Positions 55,847 to 64,000 of a stretch of DNA of 64,000 bases are shown here, piece after piece. Position 1 is the first letter of the stretch. The number at the start of each line of letters is the position of its first letter. Origin of the DNA: Flavihumibacter petaseus NBRC 106054. GTDB lineage: Bacteria; Bacteroidota; Bacteroidia; Chitinophagales; Chitinophagaceae. Location of the stretch: positions 496,001-560,000 of the forward strand of contig NZ_BBWV01000003.1 in NCBI RefSeq assembly GCF_000974785.1, written 5' to 3'. Made by a program: the position numbers and the translations under genes. The notes beneath the pieces are model-generated. The model did not search any database. It was not told the DNA's origin and saw nothing but the letters and a program-made list of their open reading frames with translations.

Positions 55847-56509
55847 TTACCATATTGGATGCCCCTCAACAGTAGTATCCGGGGAAAGGTGCTTACCCAG
55901 TCGATCGTTTTTTACTGACTTCAAACTTCCATTCAACTTCAGGAAAATTGTTATTATAAAGTAAAATACGAATGCAAATAGAACTGTAACCGGTATAAAC
56001 CAATTTCCCAAAACTTCGAACGCCTGTAAGTTATCATTGGAAGCAAATACACCATATCGAAAGATTTCTCCCTTTTTGTAATAAAAACCAACACTTGACG
56101 GGTAGAATAGTTTTGCAACTGCCAGGAATGAAAATGCAGCAATAAAAAGGTATGAAATGAAAAATATTATATACGTTATCCCATAGGAGAGGTTTAGCAT
56201 TAAAGCCTGAATTACATGGACCGGATTAAATGTTCTGATGGCCTGGTTCAATTTCCTTTCAGCAACCAGGGGTTTTAACACCTCATCAGGAACGCCTATT
56301 CTATCCAAAACAGTAAGCAGATTGGTCACTTCACCGGTTTCGGGATTCTTTTTGGCCATACTCTCATAGATATGGCTGTTTAGTTCCATTAAAATATCTT
56401 GCTGATCTTCCCTGGGAAGCTTTTTTGTGGCTGATTTTATCTGCTTCAAATAGTTTTCATAAATCCTTTGAGCATCACTGATTTTAAATTGCAGCTTTTT
56501 AAATTCCAT
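55847..56509 (-). CDS. HAAS-domain membrane protein, partner of PadR
   Basis: This 220-residue protein starts at MEFKKLQFKIS, five bases after the PadR stop; the longer upstream frame is not credible. Residues 10-60 (YLKQIKSATKKLPREDQQDI and then MELNSHIYE) match the HAAS signalling domain. Three or four membrane helices follow. HAAS proteins are usually encoded with PadR regulators and are thought to relay a membrane signal to them; the signal is unknown. Confidence 0.8.
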   Translation of the reverse strand: MEFKKLQFKISDAQRIYENYLKQIKSATKKLPREDQQDILMELNSHIYESMAKKNPETGEVTNLLTVLDRIGVPDEVLKPLVAERKLNQAIRTFNPVHVIQALMLNLSYGITYIIFFISYLFIAAFSFLAVAKLFYPSSVGFYYKKGEIFRYGVFASNDNLQAFEVLGNWFIPVTVLFAFVFYFIITIFLKLNGSLKSVKNDRLGKHLSPDTTVEGHPIW

Positions 56510-56514
56510 ATTCG

Positions 56515-56847
56515 TTACATTAGCTTTGTGATTAATTTTTGCAGGTTCTTCCATTGTACTTTCATTTCTTCCAGTGTTTGCTTTCCGGTTTTTGTGAGGA
56601 AATAATACTTTCTGGGAATTCCCGTCTCCTGCTCCACCCACTTAGAGTCTAAAAGTTTATCAGTTTTGAGTCGGTTTACTAATGGGTACAGCGTACCTTC
56701 TGCGATTTCAATGGAAGTTTGATTCCTTATTTTTTCGATCAGGTCATAACCATATAGTTCGTTCTTGTCCAAAACAATTAATACAATAAAGGATAATGTT
56801 CCTTTTTTCACCTGTGAATGCCATTTGTCTATGAACTCTTTATTCAT
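56515..56847 (-). CDS. PadR family transcriptional regulator
   Basis: This 110-residue winged-helix protein starts at MNKEFIDKWHSQ and shows the PadR signature ELYGYDLIEKI, EGTLYPLVNRL and RKYYFLT. It probably represses its own operon with the HAAS gene, binding the dyad at 56867. An alternative upstream start would add six residues. Confidence 0.92.
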   Translation of the reverse strand: MNKEFIDKWHSQVKKGTLSFIVLIVLDKNELYGYDLIEKIRNQTSIEIAEGTLYPLVNRLKTDKLLDSKWVEQETGIPRKYYFLTKTGKQTLEEMKVQWKNLQKLITKLM

Positions 56848-56866
56848 GGCATAAATGTAAATCAAA

Positions 56867-57216: not shown

Positions 57217-58398
57217 ATGAAATGTAGGTCTGTACTACTATTGGTAGCCCTTTCTGTATGCGCTTCTGCTATTGCTCAAGACAACCTTTTCCCTCCCGCA
57301 GGCAATGCAAGAATCGGAGCATTCCCAACTGGTGTGAATGCATTGGCCAATTTGCACATCCGCACTTACGATTTTGAAAAGTTATGGTTGGAATGGCCTT
57401 CTACTTCGCTTGATGGTGTTGTTCAACAGCGCTTTAAAAACTCAGGATATGATATGATTCTGGGTGAAATCGGCTCGGCGTATTTCTCTTCCGGCTATCG
57501 CAAAACTTCATCTGCCTTTCTTTCCACCAATGCTCCCAACGGCCTGCAACTGGTCAACTACAGCCCAAATGGTGTTATCAGGCTTTACACCGGAGGATCA
57601 GCAGACGCAAATGAAAGGATAAAGCTCGACTCTGCCGGGCGGTTCTTTGCTTATACTATCAGCAGAAAGACTGTTGTCAGGGATTCCATCCTTTCACTGG
57701 ATTCAAGTGGTGAAATTCAATTCACTCCCCTGCGCGCCAGCAAGCTCTACGCATTGGATACCAGAAGTGTCTCAACTACGCCTGATACCTACAGCCAACT
57801 TCTGATGTCTCAGGTCAAAACCCATTCGGTAATAACGCTTCCCGGTACGAGTACCAGCGTGGCTTCCGTGATTGGTATCAGAAACGGGGCCAACAGCAGC
57901 AATGGCTACGCTCATGAACTCGCATTTACAGACAGCAGCCAGTTGTATGTACGTTCCGGCGCCTCCACCACCTGGGGAAACTGGCGCAGACTTATTGTGG
58001 AAGACAACGCTGGCAATATCGTAATGGGTTCTTCAGCTACACCTGGTAAGCTGTCAGTGAACGGTGACATTAAGGCGAAAAAGATCCGCATTACCCAAAC
58101 CGGCTGGGCGGATTTTGTTTTTCAGCCAGACTATCTCCTGCCGGATCTCTATACCGTAGAGCGATTCATCCAGCAAAACCGCCACCTCCCCGGCATCGTT
58201 TCTGCCAAAGAGGTCGAAGCCAACGGCATAGATGTCGGCAATAGCCAGGCAGCGCTCCTTCAAAAGATCGAGGAACTCACCCTCTACGCTATTCAGCAAC
58301 AAAAAGCCATCGATAAACTGGAAGCGGAGAAAAAAGACCAGTCCGCCATCCTCCAATCGCTCCTGTTGCGTGTTCAGCAATTGGAATCCTCCCGTTAA
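57217..58398 (+). CDS. Exported fibre-like protein with conserved C-terminal coiled-coil domain
   Basis: This 393-residue protein has a signal peptide (to about residue 21). The middle has beta-rich repeats and a pyocin-knob-like stretch (TTWGNWRRLIVEDNAGN). The last ~110 residues (from VNGDIKAKKI; then WADFVFQPDYLLPDLYTVER, HLPGIVSAKEVE and KIEELTLYAIQQQK) are a domain common in Bacteroidota exported proteins, ending in a coiled coil. The layout recalls tail-fibre tips, but there are no other phage genes. It is the first gene of a four-gene operon of exported proteins. Confidence 0.8.
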   Translation: MKCRSVLLLVALSVCASAIAQDNLFPPAGNARIGAFPTGVNALANLHIRTYDFEKLWLEWPSTSLDGVVQQRFKNSGYDMILGEIGSAYFSSGYRKTSSAFLSTNAPNGLQLVNYSPNGVIRLYTGGSADANERIKLDSAGRFFAYTISRKTVVRDSILSLDSSGEIQFTPLRASKLYALDTRSVSTTPDTYSQLLMSQVKTHSVITLPGTSTSVASVIGIRNGANSSNGYAHELAFTDSSQLYVRSGASTTWGNWRRLIVEDNAGNIVMGSSATPGKLSVNGDIKAKKIRITQTGWADFVFQPDYLLPDLYTVERFIQQNRHLPGIVSAKEVEANGIDVGNSQAALLQKIEELTLYAIQQQKAIDKLEAEKKDQSAILQSLLLRVQQLESSR

Positions 58399-58417
58399 GC
58401 CGACCACCAAACCATTG

Positions 58418-60634
58418 ATGAAAACCTTATCCCTCATATGGTTAATGGGTGGCATTTTTCTGCTGGCAGTGCTTCCGCAGCGGCTCTTTTCACAGACCGC
58501 CAAAAGCTGGACGCTGACTACAGATACCAGCATGCTTTTCAGTGATACCAGCTTTGTCTTTTCCTGCAAATTACCGGAAAAGAAAGGCGCAGGAATACAG
58601 CCCCTGGCAGCATTCAACAGACCCAAAGGCGGCTTACTGGAACTCCGCGGCGGTACGATTGGTTACCAGGCCATGTATCAATCCAATATTGATACCCCCC
58701 TGATCGAAAAAAATATAGCGCAGCACAATGTCATGCTTCAGTTCGATATGACAGTAGCGGGGATCATTCCTATCCAGGCCAGGGCCTGGACAAGGCAATC
58801 CAATTCAATGTTTTATCGCGACATAACGGATTTTCAGGTGCTGTACGATCAGTCTTTCATGACCAGTCAGTTGTATGGAAGTTACCGGCAGCGCCTCCTG
58901 GAAGCAGTGGATGAAAAAGCTGTCGGTCAGTTGTCTCAATGCCTGGAAGCTGAACTCGGCAAACTGAAGTATCAGCTGGCTACGCTTCAGGGTGGTGCGT
59001 GGCAGCAGAAATTGATTGAAGCCCGGGAGATACTGAATGTGCCCGGTATAACCGATGATCCCAACTTGTCTGATTCGCTTAACAGAATTCTTGGTGACTC
59101 TCTCCGGCACAGCGCCAGTGTCTTTATCAACACCTATAACGCCTATGCCGGGCGCATTGAAAAATGGCAACATTCAATCGACTCCATCGAGCTGATCCGG
59201 AATCGAATGGAGGCAAAGATTTCGACAGTCAAACGGTGGCTGGACAGGCCAGACTGGCAGGATATTGCCGGGGGACAAACCCTGCAGGATTCACTGATGG
59301 CTGTGGCTGGGGACTGGAAACTCCCACCCAGGCTGAAGTGGCTTACAGGTATACGTCGGTTTAGCCTGGGCAGGGCACCGCTGAATAGCAGCGAACTGAC
59401 TTCCCGGAATATTTCCGTTAATGGCATCGCCTTCGAATACAACAGCTGGTATTACCTGTCCTTTGCTGCGGGTGGAGTCGACTACCGCTTCAGGGATTAT
59501 GGTCTTTCAGGCCAGTCCCGGAAGTTCCAACCATTGGTCTTGCTTCGGCTGGGAATCGGAAAAATCGGCCGCGATTACCTGATCGCGTCAGGATACTCCG
59601 GCCGCAAAATGATTTCCGGCAGTTCGTCCGGAAAAAGTTTCCAGGTTTCCGGTGTCACGCTCGAAGGAAAGAAATATATCGGACGGACGATCTGGATTTC
59701 CGGTGAAGTCGGGCAATCTGTTTCACCTGACTACCGGTCGAATCCATACCAGGACAAAACCAGCCTGGGATTCAGCAAGGATGGCAATTCTGCAATTGCT
59801 GTAAAAGCTGGAGGCATTCTGCCCTTGATTCATGGTAGAATAGAAGCGGGCTATAAAAAAACGGGCACCAATTTCCAATCTTTCAGCACCTGGCAGGTAA
59901 ATACCGCACAGGAAGCATGGTACCTGAAGTATGACCAACGCCTGCTGCGAAATCAATTGAGGTTCTCGGCTTCCCTGCGCACTAATGAATGGCAGAATCC
60001 TAACCTCCCGCAGGCCTATGCGACAAATACCATTTTCAAAACTGTCATGCTGACTTACGCCAGGCGTCGTTGGCCAACGGTCACGGCAGGTTATTTTCCC
60101 ATTACCCAGCTGGCGAAAGTCGGTGAACAGGTAGTGGAGACGAAATATCAAACCTTTTCCACCAATATCTGGCACCAGTACCGGCTTCGCGAAACACCCA
60201 TGAGTACCAGCATAGCATTGCTGAAATCTTTTGACGGGTACGACAGTTCTTTGTTTTATCAGAACAGCAGCAATCTCCAGGTGACGCAGACTTTGTTCTT
60301 CAGGCTGTTTACCAGCAGCCTGGCAGTGTCGAAAGTGAGCAATACTATGTTTCAGATGTGGGTCGGTGACCATAAACTGCAGGTGCCTTTGCTGAAAGGC
60401 AGAACGGTTGTCGGAATTGGGGTGAAAGTGTACAACTACAATTATAAGCAGTCCGCAGCAGGCTGTTCCTTCAGCGCAGCATTTGCCTTCTGGCATCAGG
60501 CTCAGCTGGCAATTTTTGCCGAGCGGGCTTTTTTGCCTACCGCCAGCAACGGACTGCAACAGGCTGATATCGGCAATATCCAGTTTACCAAGTCATTTCA
60601 ATTTAAATCTTCACGATCAAAACAGACCAATTGA
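58418..60634 (+). CDS. Large exported protein with predicted outer-membrane beta-barrel, unknown family
   Basis: This 738-residue protein starts at MKTLSLIWLMGGIFLL, with a signal peptide; upstream codons in frame are not signal-like. The N-terminal third is beta-rich, the middle (about residues 130-290) is helical and partly coiled, and the C-terminal half has alternating aromatic strands (YLKYDQRLLRNQLRFSASL, YARRRWPTVTAGYF) like a beta-barrel. The C-terminal end is not a T9SS tail. It starts 19 bp after the fibre-like gene and overlaps the next gene by one base. I do not recognise its family. Confidence 0.72.
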   Translation: MKTLSLIWLMGGIFLLAVLPQRLFSQTAKSWTLTTDTSMLFSDTSFVFSCKLPEKKGAGIQPLAAFNRPKGGLLELRGGTIGYQAMYQSNIDTPLIEKNIAQHNVMLQFDMTVAGIIPIQARAWTRQSNSMFYRDITDFQVLYDQSFMTSQLYGSYRQRLLEAVDEKAVGQLSQCLEAELGKLKYQLATLQGGAWQQKLIEAREILNVPGITDDPNLSDSLNRILGDSLRHSASVFINTYNAYAGRIEKWQHSIDSIELIRNRMEAKISTVKRWLDRPDWQDIAGGQTLQDSLMAVAGDWKLPPRLKWLTGIRRFSLGRAPLNSSELTSRNISVNGIAFEYNSWYYLSFAAGGVDYRFRDYGLSGQSRKFQPLVLLRLGIGKIGRDYLIASGYSGRKMISGSSSGKSFQVSGVTLEGKKYIGRTIWISGEVGQSVSPDYRSNPYQDKTSLGFSKDGNSAIAVKAGGILPLIHGRIEAGYKKTGTNFQSFSTWQVNTAQEAWYLKYDQRLLRNQLRFSASLRTNEWQNPNLPQAYATNTIFKTVMLTYARRRWPTVTAGYFPITQLAKVGEQVVETKYQTFSTNIWHQYRLRETPMSTSIALLKSFDGYDSSLFYQNSSNLQVTQTLFFRLFTSSLAVSKVSNTMFQMWVGDHKLQVPLLKGRTVVGIGVKVYNYNYKQSAAGCSFSAAFAFWHQAQLAIFAERAFLPTASNGLQQADIGNIQFTKSFQFKSSRSKQTN

Positions 60635-61743
60635 TGAGAGTCATATTCGGTATATTCTTCTGGTTGCTCATTTACCATCCGGTAAAGGCACAGGTAGTGA
60701 TCAGCCCCCAGTTGCCTTCCCCCGGCGTTTTTACCAAACCACAACTTTGGAATGTTTCGATACTAAATTCCGGTAAACAGGCATTTATGGTGCGGCTTCA
60801 GTTAACGATCACCGAGGTTAACACCAATCAACTGGTGCTTTCGGGTGTGACGCGGAACTTTCAAATGCCAGTGGGGGCAAGCCAGATCACGCATAATGAT
60901 GTAATGCCGGTGATTTACCAGGATGCCAATCCGACTTTCCAGGTGGACAACACACCCAATGGTTTTCTGCCTGTCGGGGTTTTCAATATCTGTTATGCGC
61001 TGGTTTACCAACAGGGAGACGCCGTCGAGACGCTGGCGGAAGAATGCTTGTCACTGGAGGTGGAACCACTGTCGCCACCCCAATTGGTATTGCCTGCTGA
61101 TAGCGAACGCGTCAATACCGCAAGACCCATGTTTTCCTGGACGCCACCCATGCCGTATACATTCTTCAGCAACCTGTCTTACGATTTCCAGCTGGTGGAA
61201 GTAGCCTCTTATCAGACAGCTGCAGAAGCAATACAGGTCAACGTGCCGTTGTTCCGGAAGCCGGGAATATTGCAAACCCAGTTGCAATATCCGCAGGGGC
61301 TTCCCGCATTGGACACTGGAAAATTATATGCATGGCGGGTCGCCGCCAGCAACAATACTGCACCTGTTGGTTTCAGTGAGATCTGGTCGTTTCGTGTCGA
61401 AGCGCCTTCAGCGGTCGGGCTGGTAAAGGAGACCGGAGGCTCATACCTGTCATTGAGTTCCGCAGAAAACAACAGCCAGGCGCTGGTAATGGGTAAACTG
61501 CTGATCGCCTACGACAATCGGGAGAATGACAAGACTATGGTGTTGTCGATCCAGGCGTTAAACCAGGCTGGCCAACAAACAGAAGCTTTGGTGAATAATA
61601 TTTTACCGCTACGTTATGGTAAAAACTTACTCCAGTTTGACCTGGAAGCGAATGCTCACCTGAATGATAAATCCATATACCGCCTGACAGCAGTGACAGG
61701 TGGTAAAAAAATGTACCTCACATTTCAATATCGTCGACCATGA
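60634..61743 (+). CDS. Exported Ig/fibronectin-like protein
   Basis: This 369-residue protein has a signal peptide ending near HPVKA. Three beta-sandwich regions follow: an N-terminal one with SPQLPSPGVFTKPQLWNVSI, a central one with ARPMFSWTPPMPYTFFSNLS and WRVAASNNTAPVGFSEIWSF, and a C-terminal one. The W-PP pattern resembles fibronectin type III-like modules in Bacteroidota surface proteins. It starts inside the stop of the beta-barrel gene (TGATG) and overlaps the giant gene by ATGA. Probably an extracytoplasmic adaptor or adhesin in this operon; no known family is certain. Confidence 0.75.
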   Translation: MRVIFGIFFWLLIYHPVKAQVVISPQLPSPGVFTKPQLWNVSILNSGKQAFMVRLQLTITEVNTNQLVLSGVTRNFQMPVGASQITHNDVMPVIYQDANPTFQVDNTPNGFLPVGVFNICYALVYQQGDAVETLAEECLSLEVEPLSPPQLVLPADSERVNTARPMFSWTPPMPYTFFSNLSYDFQLVEVASYQTAAEAIQVNVPLFRKPGILQTQLQYPQGLPALDTGKLYAWRVAASNNTAPVGFSEIWSFRVEAPSAVGLVKETGGSYLSLSSAENNSQALVMGKLLIAYDNRENDKTMVLSIQALNQAGQQTEALVNNILPLRYGKNLLQFDLEANAHLNDKSIYRLTAVTGGKKMYLTFQYRRP

Positions 61744-64000
61744 TTTCTTTTTTTGTCCGGTACCAGAAGTCAATCAGTACATTTTTTGCGACGGTACTGT
61801 ATATTCAGTTCCTTTCTCCTGTCTGGGTAAGCGCGAATAGTGATGTTCCTGCTACCTTCAGAAATGCTGCAAGGTTTTCTATTGAAGACCTGAAGTCATT
61901 TTCACCCAAAGCGGAGTACCCGCGGCCAGCCACCAATGCTATCGGTGGGATAGTAGTTGACCGGAAATTACAACGACCGGCCCGCAAGGTTTTCGGCGGT
62001 GGTCCTGCACAACCGGAAATGCAATCATTTACTTCAGTAAATGGTAAAGACCTGGTTGATCAGTTTACCGGAGATTTCTCTTATTCTATACCCTTAATGG
62101 ATGTTGGCGGTTATCCTTTGACGCTTGGATACAGAAGCGGTGTTTCGATGGACCAGGAGGCGAGCTGGGTTGGCCTCGGCTGGAACCTGAATCCAGGAAC
62201 TATAACGAGGAACATGCGCGGATTACCGGACGATTTTTCAGGCATTGGTGATTCTGTCCTAAAAACTGATAACATAAAACCAAACGTTACAACAGGACTA
62301 TCCCTTGGTGCCGATCTTGAACTCGTTGGATTGCCAAATGATAGTTCTGGCATCGGGGTCGGTGTTGGATTTTCGGGCGGACTTTTCCATAACAATTATA
62401 AAGGCTGGGGCATTGAATCTGGTGTAAACGCATCAATTAGCGCAGGTTCGAAAAGCAGTGGATCTTTGACAGCTGGCCTGGCCCTTAATAACAATTCCCA
62501 GGATGGAGTTTCGTTGACACCGACTTTTTCTGCAAATATGAATGCGAGTGCGGTTGGCGGGAAATCTGGCTATGGCGGCTCGTTTTCAATTTCTGCTCCT
62601 TATAGTGCCAGATCTGGTATTAAAGCGCTGCAAATGTCAGTTGGTGTAAGACAGTTTGGATATAGTTCACGATTTTCTTCGGGTGTGACTTTTGCCAGCC
62701 CGACTTTTACACCTTCTATCAACCTGCCGTATACCTCTCAGCAAATTACATTTACCGCCAAAGTGGGCTCAGAATTTTATGCACTTAGTCCCAGTGTGTA
62801 CCTGAGTGGTTATCAATCCCGCCAATACATTGCTCCTGAAGACCAGTCAAAGTTATATCCGGCATACGGGTATATGAATTTTCAGCAAAGTAATGGTGAT
62901 GCAGAGGCACTGCTTGATTTTAACAGGGAGAAAGATATTCCTTACCGGGAAAAGCCAGCAATGCCACATATTGGGCTGCCGTTTCTGACCTACGATATGT
63001 TCTCGATTTCGGGTGAGGGTACCGGAGGACAATTCCGGGCTTATCGCAGCGACATAGGGTATGTTCATGATCATTATATGCGTACCCGGGATAATTCACA
63101 ACGTTTCAGCGTGGACGTGGGCCTGGGAAACACAATTCATGCGGGTGTTGACCTTAATCTTAACCGGTCTATCACACAAACTGACGCCTGGAAAAATGAA
63201 AATGCCCTGGCGCGGGCATTGCCGTTTCAGTCTTCAGACAGCACCTTTCAGCCGGCATACTTCAGAAATCCCATGGAAAAATCGATCATCGACCAGGCAT
63301 TTTACCATGCGGTAGGAGGTGATTCTGCAGTAGCGGCAGAATTGTACCAGCCGGATCGCAGCAGTTCTTTCATCCTGGCTACAAACGTATTGAGGAAATA
63401 CAAGGATGGAATTGCAACAGGCGATAAGGTTAGTGTTACCAGGGCAAATTCATACAGGAAGGAAAGGAACAAGCGCACCCAGGTGATTTCTTATTTGTCC
63501 GCCCGGGAAGCTGAAGTTGCCGGACTCGACAAATATGTTGAATCGTATACGCCTGGTGTGTTCAACCTTTCAAAATGTAACGGGACAGAACCCTCATTAA
63601 AGGATGGCCTGGGAACGGGACTTGATGGCTACTACTATCCTGAACTGGATTTCAAAGGAGCCGTAGTGTATAAACCCAATCAGTTTATCGATTACATGTG
63701 GAAACACAGTCCCGATATTACAGGTTTTGACGGCAATACATTTTCTGTAAGATGGCAGGGGCGTTTTAAAGTACCGGAGACAGGGGCATGGGTGTTTCGT
63801 ATTACCAGTGATGATGGCGCAAGGTTATGGGTAAATGACAGCCTGGTTTTTAATGACTGGACCTATCATGGCGAACGTTCTGATTATGTAACGCTGCATC
63901 TGGTAGCCGGAGAATCATACAAAGTAAGGATGGATTTTTTTGATGGCGAGAAGAGCGCTTCAGCAAAACTTTTCTGGCGGGGCCCGGGTTCTGGTATAAC
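61740..64000 (+). CDS. N-terminal part of a giant PA14/Rhs-like surface protein (cut by the window)
   Basis: An open frame of at least 753 codons runs off the right edge, starting in an ATGA overlap with the previous gene. The N-terminus has a signal-like hydrophobic segment (TFFATVLYIQFLSPVWVSA). A segment at about residues 115-175 (FTGDFSYSIPLMDVGGYPLT, SWVGLGWNLNPGTITRNMRG) is the signature found at the start of Bacteroidota Rhs/YD-repeat proteins. A PA14 domain begins near residue 628 (WRITSDDGARLWVND-like VFRITSDDGARLWVND). The C-terminus, which would show repeats, an Rhs core or a toxin, lies outside the window. Confidence 0.8.
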   Translation, partial: MISFFVRYQKSISTFFATVLYIQFLSPVWVSANSDVPATFRNAARFSIEDLKSFSPKAEYPRPATNAIGGIVVDRKLQRPARKVFGGGPAQPEMQSFTSVNGKDLVDQFTGDFSYSIPLMDVGGYPLTLGYRSGVSMDQEASWVGLGWNLNPGTITRNMRGLPDDFSGIGDSVLKTDNIKPNVTTGLSLGADLELVGLPNDSSGIGVGVGFSGGLFHNNYKGWGIESGVNASISAGSKSSGSLTAGLALNNNSQDGVSLTPTFSANMNASAVGGKSGYGGSFSISAPYSARSGIKALQMSVGVRQFGYSSRFSSGVTFASPTFTPSINLPYTSQQITFTAKVGSEFYALSPSVYLSGYQSRQYIAPEDQSKLYPAYGYMNFQQSNGDAEALLDFNREKDIPYREKPAMPHIGLPFLTYDMFSISGEGTGGQFRAYRSDIGYVHDHYMRTRDNSQRFSVDVGLGNTIHAGVDLNLNRSITQTDAWKNENALARALPFQSSDSTFQPAYFRNPMEKSIIDQAFYHAVGGDSAVAAELYQPDRSSSFILATNVLRKYKDGIATGDKVSVTRANSYRKERNKRTQVISYLSAREAEVAGLDKYVESYTPGVFNLSKCNGTEPSLKDGLGTGLDGYYYPELDFKGAVVYKPNQFIDYMWKHSPDITGFDGNTFSVRWQGRFKVPETGAWVFRITSDDGARLWVNDSLVFNDWTYHGERSDYVTLHLVAGESYKVRMDFFDGEKSASAKLFWRGPGSGI

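What the first reader, a model, noticed from the sequence alone, without database searches (positions are those of the whole stretch)
57217..64000. Four-gene exported operon: fibre-like protein, beta-barrel, Ig-like protein and a giant PA14/Rhs-like protein
Four consecutive plus-strand genes, each with a signal peptide, are joined by 19 bp, then a 1-bp and a 4-bp overlap, so they are translated as one unit. One is a large protein with a predicted outer-membrane barrel of no family I know. The last has the N-terminal signature of Rhs/YD-repeat giants plus a PA14 domain. A dedicated barrel, an Ig-like adaptor and a coiled-coil fibre protein beside an Rhs-type giant could form a surface display or contact-dependent delivery system not described as such. 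The partnership is inference; the gene layout is seen.
Basis: partly seen in the sequence, partly recalled or inferred. Interest (0 to 1): 0.75.

Follow-up and report, generated by a model that had tools for sequence, protein, structure and literature searches.

The report
Exported two-part Rhs toxin operon
The four genes start a longer, widely conserved gene set in Bacteroidota that makes a giant two-part toxin together with what looks like its own outer-membrane gate and chaperones, a possible answer to how such giants leave these cells.

Summary
The four genes are as described, but the window cuts the operon. It continues as D (2,534 aa, PA14), E (LolA3-family chaperone), F (2,796 aa, RHS core) and G (145 aa). 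The order barrel B, Fn3-like C, D, E, F recurs: a gene of E's size lies between D and F in 32 of 33 loci where both giants were read (29 match the LolA3 model), and all 19 above-cut-off LolA3 genes in 79 family genomes sit there. F is a polymorphic toxin: up to 270 residues before the RHS core end align in 589 of 595 pairs, the tips after it in 6 of 595; 6 of 22 main tips pass a Pfam cut-off for a toxin or pretoxin family. One genome has a single ORF with D-like ends and an RHS core, so D and F look like two halves of one Rhs chain. B models as a large barrel with a helical insertion, nearest in fold to FimD/PapC ushers, without sequence match. Another subtype adds an OmpH/Skp chaperone and a likely lipoprotein. 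Best reading: an exported, split Rhs toxin with dedicated outer-membrane assembly genes. That B is the conduit is inferred; type IX export is not excluded. Gene A is optional.

The parts
57217..58398 (+). Gene A, 393 aa fibre-like protein with a C-terminal coil; optional member
   Evidence: no Pfam or NCBIfam match; related C-terminal domain in 16 of 133 loci
58418..60634 (+). Gene B, 738 aa outer-membrane barrel with a helical insertion at residues 145-311; core member
   Evidence: fold nearest to FimD/PapC ushers; barrels of two other subtypes homologous by hhalign
60634..61743 (+). Gene C, 369 aa, three tandem Fn3/Ig-like domains; core member
61740..64000 (+). Gene D, first Rhs half, PA14 domain. 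The gene runs on to position 69344 in window numbering (2,534 aa). Beyond the window follow E (LolA3 family, 69355-70086), F (RHS toxin half, 70097-78487) and G (145 aa, 78502-78939)

Best explanation
The locus encodes an exported, two-chain Rhs polymorphic toxin with its own envelope assembly genes. D and F cross the inner membrane by Sec and together form the Rhs shell; F carries the RHS core and a replaceable C-terminal toxin tip. E (LolA3 family), plus an OmpH/Skp chaperone and a likely lipoprotein in another subtype, keep the giants or their hydrophobic parts competent in the periplasm. B, a large outer-membrane barrel, with C, an Fn3-type partner, passes or anchors the complex at the cell surface. 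The tip is then released at the RHS core and acts on neighbouring cells; the small gene after F protects the producer. Shown by computation: conserved order, barrel fold, LolA3 family, split Rhs, polymorphic tips. Inferred: Sec export, shell assembly, chaperoning, B as conduit, release, target, immunity.
For: Gene order in 35 loci from 23 genomes. A gene of 200-320 aa lies between D and F in 32 of 33 loci where both were read; 29 of the 32 overlap a LolA3 match at E up to 0.001, three are named by position only. All 19 above-cut-off LolA3 places are among them. In 80 loci chosen only by the D N-terminus, C was upstream in 60 of 73, B in 48 of 68 and E downstream in 38 of 55 with room to see it. 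Of 198 phylum-wide genomes, 4 have above-cut-off LolA3, all with a strong D on the same contig about 7-22 kb away; two of the 4 (G000, G070) were already in the family set. Tip variability: 589 of 595 against 6 of 595 pairs. Toxin or pretoxin families at curated cut-offs in 6 of 22 main tips. RHS core and Tse5 match in F. Fused D-to-core ORF in G205. Usher-like fold of B. OmpH/Skp gene in 3 of 3 scanned.
Against: No protein-protein contact or transport was tested. The D-F pair also occurs without B, C or E matches (5 of the 18 loci; a sixth, G251, has B, C, D and F but no E; 13 of 73 D without C), so B-C-E are not needed for every D-F pair. The genome's own second copy lacks E. All 38 D-bearing genomes tested also have the type IX marker SprA. 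Sixteen of 22 main tips match no toxin family at its cut-off, the window's own tip among them, with only a sub-threshold OmpA match (E 0.008). The usher match has a TM-score of only 0.38.
Confidence: 0.5

Rival explanations
1. D and F are exported by the type IX system like other Bacteroidota giants; B and C are surface receptors or anchors for the exported complex, and E serves folding only.
For: SprA_N found in 38 of 38 D-bearing genomes tested. TANFOR polymorphic toxins of the same phylum were proposed, not shown, to be type IX substrates (PMC7073777, parts 1-2 of 6 and section 9 read). B could be a receptor: OprD-type porins score next after ushers.
Against: None of the seven proteins matched a sorting-domain model in NCBIfam (E up to 1), and F ends in a variable tip. 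Type IX is widespread in these groups (recalled), so its presence carries little weight; no genomes without D were tested as a control. A dedicated barrel and LolA-like gene would be unnecessary.
Confidence: 0.28
2. The complex is a variable surface adhesin or wall-binding structure, not a killing system; tips give binding specificity.
For: PA14 and Fn3 domains are common binding modules (general knowledge). The window's tip is weakly OmpA-like and one cassette tip has LysM, both folds that can bind cell wall (recalled).
Against: Six of 22 main tips are EndoU (two), HNH, glutamine-deamidase, Scabin-like or pretoxin HINT families, which are toxin or pretoxin domains. Arrays of F-like cassettes after F are typical of polymorphic toxins.
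Confidence: 0.1
3. D-F is an ordinary Rhs pair and B-C-E is a hitch-hiking envelope cassette that serves another cargo.
For: D-F pairs exist without B-C-E; the barrel is displaced downstream of F in genome G002.
Against: A gene of E's size is placed between the two halves of the toxin in 32 of 33 loci; among 51 loci with room for both, every one of the 35 with E also had C.
Confidence: 0.12

Closest known systems
Rhs polymorphic toxins (incl. T6SS effector Tse5, Bacteroidetes RHS toxins of Zhang et al. 2012, PMC3482391)
   Same: RHS core, variable C-terminal tips, downstream cassettes with small genes
   Different: Split in two giants with a LolA3 gene between, and a barrel plus Fn3 gene upstream. 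In the passages seen that survey files RHS-linked tips of Bacteroidetes mostly under T2SS or TcdB/TcaC, and the held text (first 300,000 of 357,715 characters) has no occurrence of LolA, OmpH or usher
Tc toxin TcB-TcC (BC) cocoon
   Same: Two-chain layout; first chain with an N-terminal motif that by eye resembles SpvB (recalled); second chain with RHS core and variable tip
   Different: No SpvB (PF03534) match in D at E up to 1, PA14 stretches in D, no TcA-like gene in the operon, barrel and periplasmic chaperone genes instead
Chaperone-usher systems (FimD/PapC)
   Same: Fold of B: large barrel with an inserted segment, best structural matches; an Ig-like protein next to it
   Different: No sequence match to Pfam usher; insertion is helical; C has three Fn3-like domains; about 26 strands by DSSP, where ushers have 24 (recalled)
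TANFOR polymorphic toxins (PMC7073777)
   Same: Bacteroidota, signal peptide, Fn3 domains, polymorphic toxin tips
   Different: Defined by another N-terminal domain; no TANFOR hit in the operon proteins or in 56 C proteins
LolA3 of F. johnsoniae and P. gingivalis (PMC11885536, PMC13103446)
   Same: E is in NCBIfam LolA3 family (E 5e-45)
   Different: Studied there without a role found; 'Rhs' does not occur in either main text

Membership tests
Rhs polymorphic toxin | RHS repeat-associated core | tested here: met
   TIGR03696 E 2e-10, 41.0 bits against cut-off 32.5, in F
Rhs polymorphic toxin | C-terminal tips vary sharply after a conserved core | tested here: met
   589 of 595 pairs align before, 6 of 595 after the core end; 35 tips (22 main F, 13 cassettes)
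Rhs polymorphic toxin | Tips are known toxin domains | tested here: met
   6 of 22 main tips and 2 of 8 scanned cassette tips over a Pfam cut-off (one of the two is LysM, not a toxin); 5 of 13 cassette tips not scanned; window's own tip none
Rhs polymorphic toxin | Cognate immunity gene downstream | tested here: inconclusive
   G (145 aa) follows F at 14 bp and has one homologue, after an F-like fragment without the core in G003; no immunity family over cut-off
Tc toxin BC pair | SpvB domain in the first chain | tested here: not met
   no PF03534 hit at E up to 1 in D; the D profile finds no Tc structure
Tc toxin BC pair | TcA injection subunit encoded nearby | tested here: not met
   no Pfam hit of that kind in the seven operon proteins; elsewhere in the genome not searched
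Chaperone-usher system | Usher family PF00577 | tested here: not met
   no hit in window B at E up to 1 or in the 46 members of A5 at E up to 0.01
Chaperone-usher system | Usher barrel fold with inserted plug | tested here: inconclusive
Chaperone-usher system | Two-domain Ig chaperone | tested here: inconclusive
   C has three Fn3/Ig-like domains; most listed matches are Fn3 proteins
Type IX substrate | C-terminal sorting domain | tested here: not met
   no NCBIfam sorting-domain hit in the seven proteins at E up to 1
LolA3 family | NCBIfam NF053579 above cut-off | tested here: met
   153.8 bits against 83
TANFOR toxin | TANFOR domain | tested here: inconclusive
   no hit in the seven proteins or 56 C proteins; I did not check that TIGR02542 is in this release

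The most novel reading that the evidence does not exclude
B-C, with E and in one subtype Skp and a lipoprotein, form a previously undescribed outer-membrane secretion pathway of Bacteroidota, usher-like in fold, dedicated to two-chain Rhs toxins; LolA3 is its periplasmic chaperone.
Probability: 0.35. Interest if true: 0.88.

Novelty: new variant of a known kind. Interest (0 to 1): 0.72.

Why it matters
How Rhs giants with signal peptides cross the outer membrane of Bacteroidota is open in the papers seen (the 2012 survey files them under generic T2SS or TcdB/TcaC; the TANFOR paper speculates on type IX for its class). A conserved operon that puts a family-less barrel, an Fn3 protein and a LolA-like chaperone beside such a toxin makes that question testable with gene deletions. 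It also gives the orphan chaperone LolA3 a genomic context that the two LolA3 papers seen do not mention, and predicts a toxin repertoire and immunity genes across Chitinophagaceae.

Tried and rejected
D as a relative of solved Tc or Rhs structures: the D profile found none, so the SpvB resemblance stays a by-eye lead. LolA3 profile A2 against the PDB by sequence: only one weak unrelated hit (E 0.59). C as a pilus-type chaperone: the match lists are mainly Fn3 proteins; no pilus chaperone is among the rows shown, which does not exclude one. C as a TANFOR domain: no hit in 56 members. The fibre gene A as a core member: not conserved in place. Presence of type IX as a test: uninformative, 38 of 38 positive and no control without D. 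Immunity function of G: only one homologue found, left open. Papers: the ten searches gave no paper that I recognised as describing this operon, from titles, abstract starts and the passages read; preprints and most subscription journals are not in that library.

Weak points of my own counts: the 35 loci were chosen because they had B, C or E matches, so they show order, not frequency. The 80 loci are the best 80 of at least 568. In one search the gene taken as B in genome G002 is an 861-aa gene that looks unrelated by eye (its barrel match lies after F), so one of the 28 sequences in my B model was probably wrong. E genes are very divergent (11-31% identity to the window's); three of 32 were named by position only. 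Eight of the 20 loci without a B match do have C or small genes before D, so the B count may be too low. The Fisher value (1e-4) ignores relatedness.

Full report
What is there. The window (G000:C20:496001-560000) ends inside the fourth gene. Reading on gives seven + strand genes: A 393 aa, B 738 aa, C 369 aa, D 2,534 aa, E 243 aa, F 2,796 aa, G 145 aa. Spacing is 19 bp, -1 bp, -4 bp, 10 bp (from the GTG chosen for E), 10 bp and 14 bp. All have N-termini that look like signal peptides by eye.

Families. Pfam and NCBIfam (E up to 1): A and B none; C a sub-threshold DUF928 match; D PA14 (E 4e-32, two stretches); E LolA3 family (E 5e-45); F DUF6443, a sub-threshold RHS repeat match and the RHS core (TIGR03696, E 2e-10); G nothing over threshold. 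F also matches the Rhs toxin Tse5 among solved structures (E 1e-3).

Conservation. In 79 genomes of the family (own included), LolA3 passes its cut-off in 14 genomes at 19 places; B matches in 17 genomes, C in 27. I examined 35 loci from 23 genomes, 34 of them fetched and the window's own, and labelled their genes. The order B-C-D-E-F recurs, usually with gaps under 100 bases where no small gene intervenes and D is not split. All 19 above-cut-off LolA3 places lie between a D and an F. A gene of E's size is missing in 1 of 33 loci where both giants were read: the genome's own second copy. Of the 32 present, 29 overlap a LolA3 match (E up to 0.001) and three (G028 second locus, G036, G017) rest on position. 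Fifteen D proteins share 32-49% identity with the window's, so these are not recent copies.

A less biased sample. A scan of named genomes with only the D N-terminus kept the best 80 of at least 568 relatives, by title mostly Chitinophagaceae (family recalled), with some records titled Saprospiraceae, Bacteroidales, Cytophagales and Flavobacteriales. Where enough sequence was held, C lay upstream in 60 of 73, B in 48 of 68, and E after D in 38 of 55. Among 51 loci with room for both, 35 had C and E, 9 C only, 7 neither, none E only.

Phylum scale. The D motif matches in 39 of 198 genomes (15 with more than 110 bits). LolA3 passes its cut-off in 4 of 198, each with a strong D on the same contig; two of the four (G000, G070) were already in the family set. 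In the two new ones, G243 and G247, E sits between a D-like segment and F. Of the 18 loci read, six have D followed directly by F without E: G251 (which has B and C matches), G152, G140, G236, G084 and G097 (no B or C match). In G205 one 2,556-aa frame carries the D N-terminal motif (53-114), the D C-terminal region (1288-1421) and an RHS core (2204-2260). This single fused case is why I read D and F as two halves of one Rhs chain.

Two kinds of DUF6443 giant. In the 79 genomes DUF6443 occurs in 42. Many strong matches are in frames of about 1,400-2,400 aa. The long F of this system (about 2,400-3,750 aa where not cut by a contig end) has weak DUF6443 matches. The short kind can pair with a shorter D-like gene without B, C or E matches (G034, G070 second locus).

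Toxin tips. A model of the RHS core end located 35 tips of more than 150 aa: 22 in complete main F proteins and 13 in downstream cassettes. Up to 270 residues before the boundary align in 589 of 595 pairs, the tips in 6 of 595. Of 30 tips scanned (22 main, 8 of 13 cassettes), main tips over Pfam cut-offs were Gln_amidase, Scabin-like, PT-HINT, EndoU twice and Tox-HNH-HHH; cassette tips over cut-off were Ntox46 and LysM. Sixteen main tips, the window's own included, had none; the window's tip gives a sub-threshold OmpA match (E 0.008). The 2012 survey lists a Tox-OmpA tip among polymorphic toxins (PMC3482391, passage).

C and the small genes. C models as three Fn3/Ig-like domains (pLDDT 91.8). 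In 10 of the 32 loci with C and D labelled, one or two small genes lie between them. Some are OmpH/Skp-type chaperones (PF03938 over cut-off in 3 of 3 scanned, two from these loci and one from G140); others are proteins of about 155-240 aa with a lipobox by eye, without a Pfam family over cut-off in the 2 scanned. D has a conserved signal region (consensus).

Mechanism. Export of two Rhs halves by Sec, periplasmic handling by E (and Skp), passage or anchoring by the barrel with C, then tip release at the core. The core end keeps a DP near its start in 32 of 35 cases, one of the three misses being a truncated cassette, in line with the aspartyl autoprotease of Rhs and TcC (recalled). The order and families are computed; transport, assembly, release and target are inferred. 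Type IX remains possible: SprA_N is in 38 of 38 tested D genomes.

Literature. LolA3 in F. johnsoniae: deletion affected neither gliding nor amylase secretion (PMC11885536, passages). In P. gingivalis it was crystallised and bound LolB only weakly, and a separate function was suggested (PMC13103446, passages). TANFOR toxins (PMC7073777, outline, parts 1-2 of 6 and section 9) are the closest described Bacteroidota class that I saw. The lipocone paper (PMC12419801, passages) reports other operons with LolA-like genes and barrels; the passages seen do not describe this one. The ten searches listed under Tried and rejected found no description of this operon.

Noticed in passing
G000:C20 about 149953-167991 (L067): A second copy in the same genome, B-C-D-F without the LolA3 gene; its F tip has a sub-threshold glycine-zipper match.
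   Followed up: partly
L050 (genome G007), about 3-13 kb: Array of four F-type C-terminal cassettes with small genes between them after the main toxin; one tip is 77% identical to the main tip.
   Followed up: partly
L030 8604-9395, L050 9948-10763, L003 693-1484: Tips with CHAP (sub-threshold), LysM and weak OmpA matches suggest that some tips act on or bind peptidoglycan.
   Followed up: no
L183 and L184: Shorter D-like plus DUF6443 RHS pairs without barrel or LolA3 matches, a separate class in the same family.
   Followed up: partly
window 55847-56865: PadR-type regulator (by eye) and a small membrane protein on the opposite strand next to the operon start; possible regulators.
   Followed up: no
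genome G071 (L029, L042, L045, L053, L081): Five loci of the system in one genome.
   Followed up: no
L061-L062, L082 (genome G002): Barrel gene lies downstream of F instead of upstream of C.
   Followed up: no
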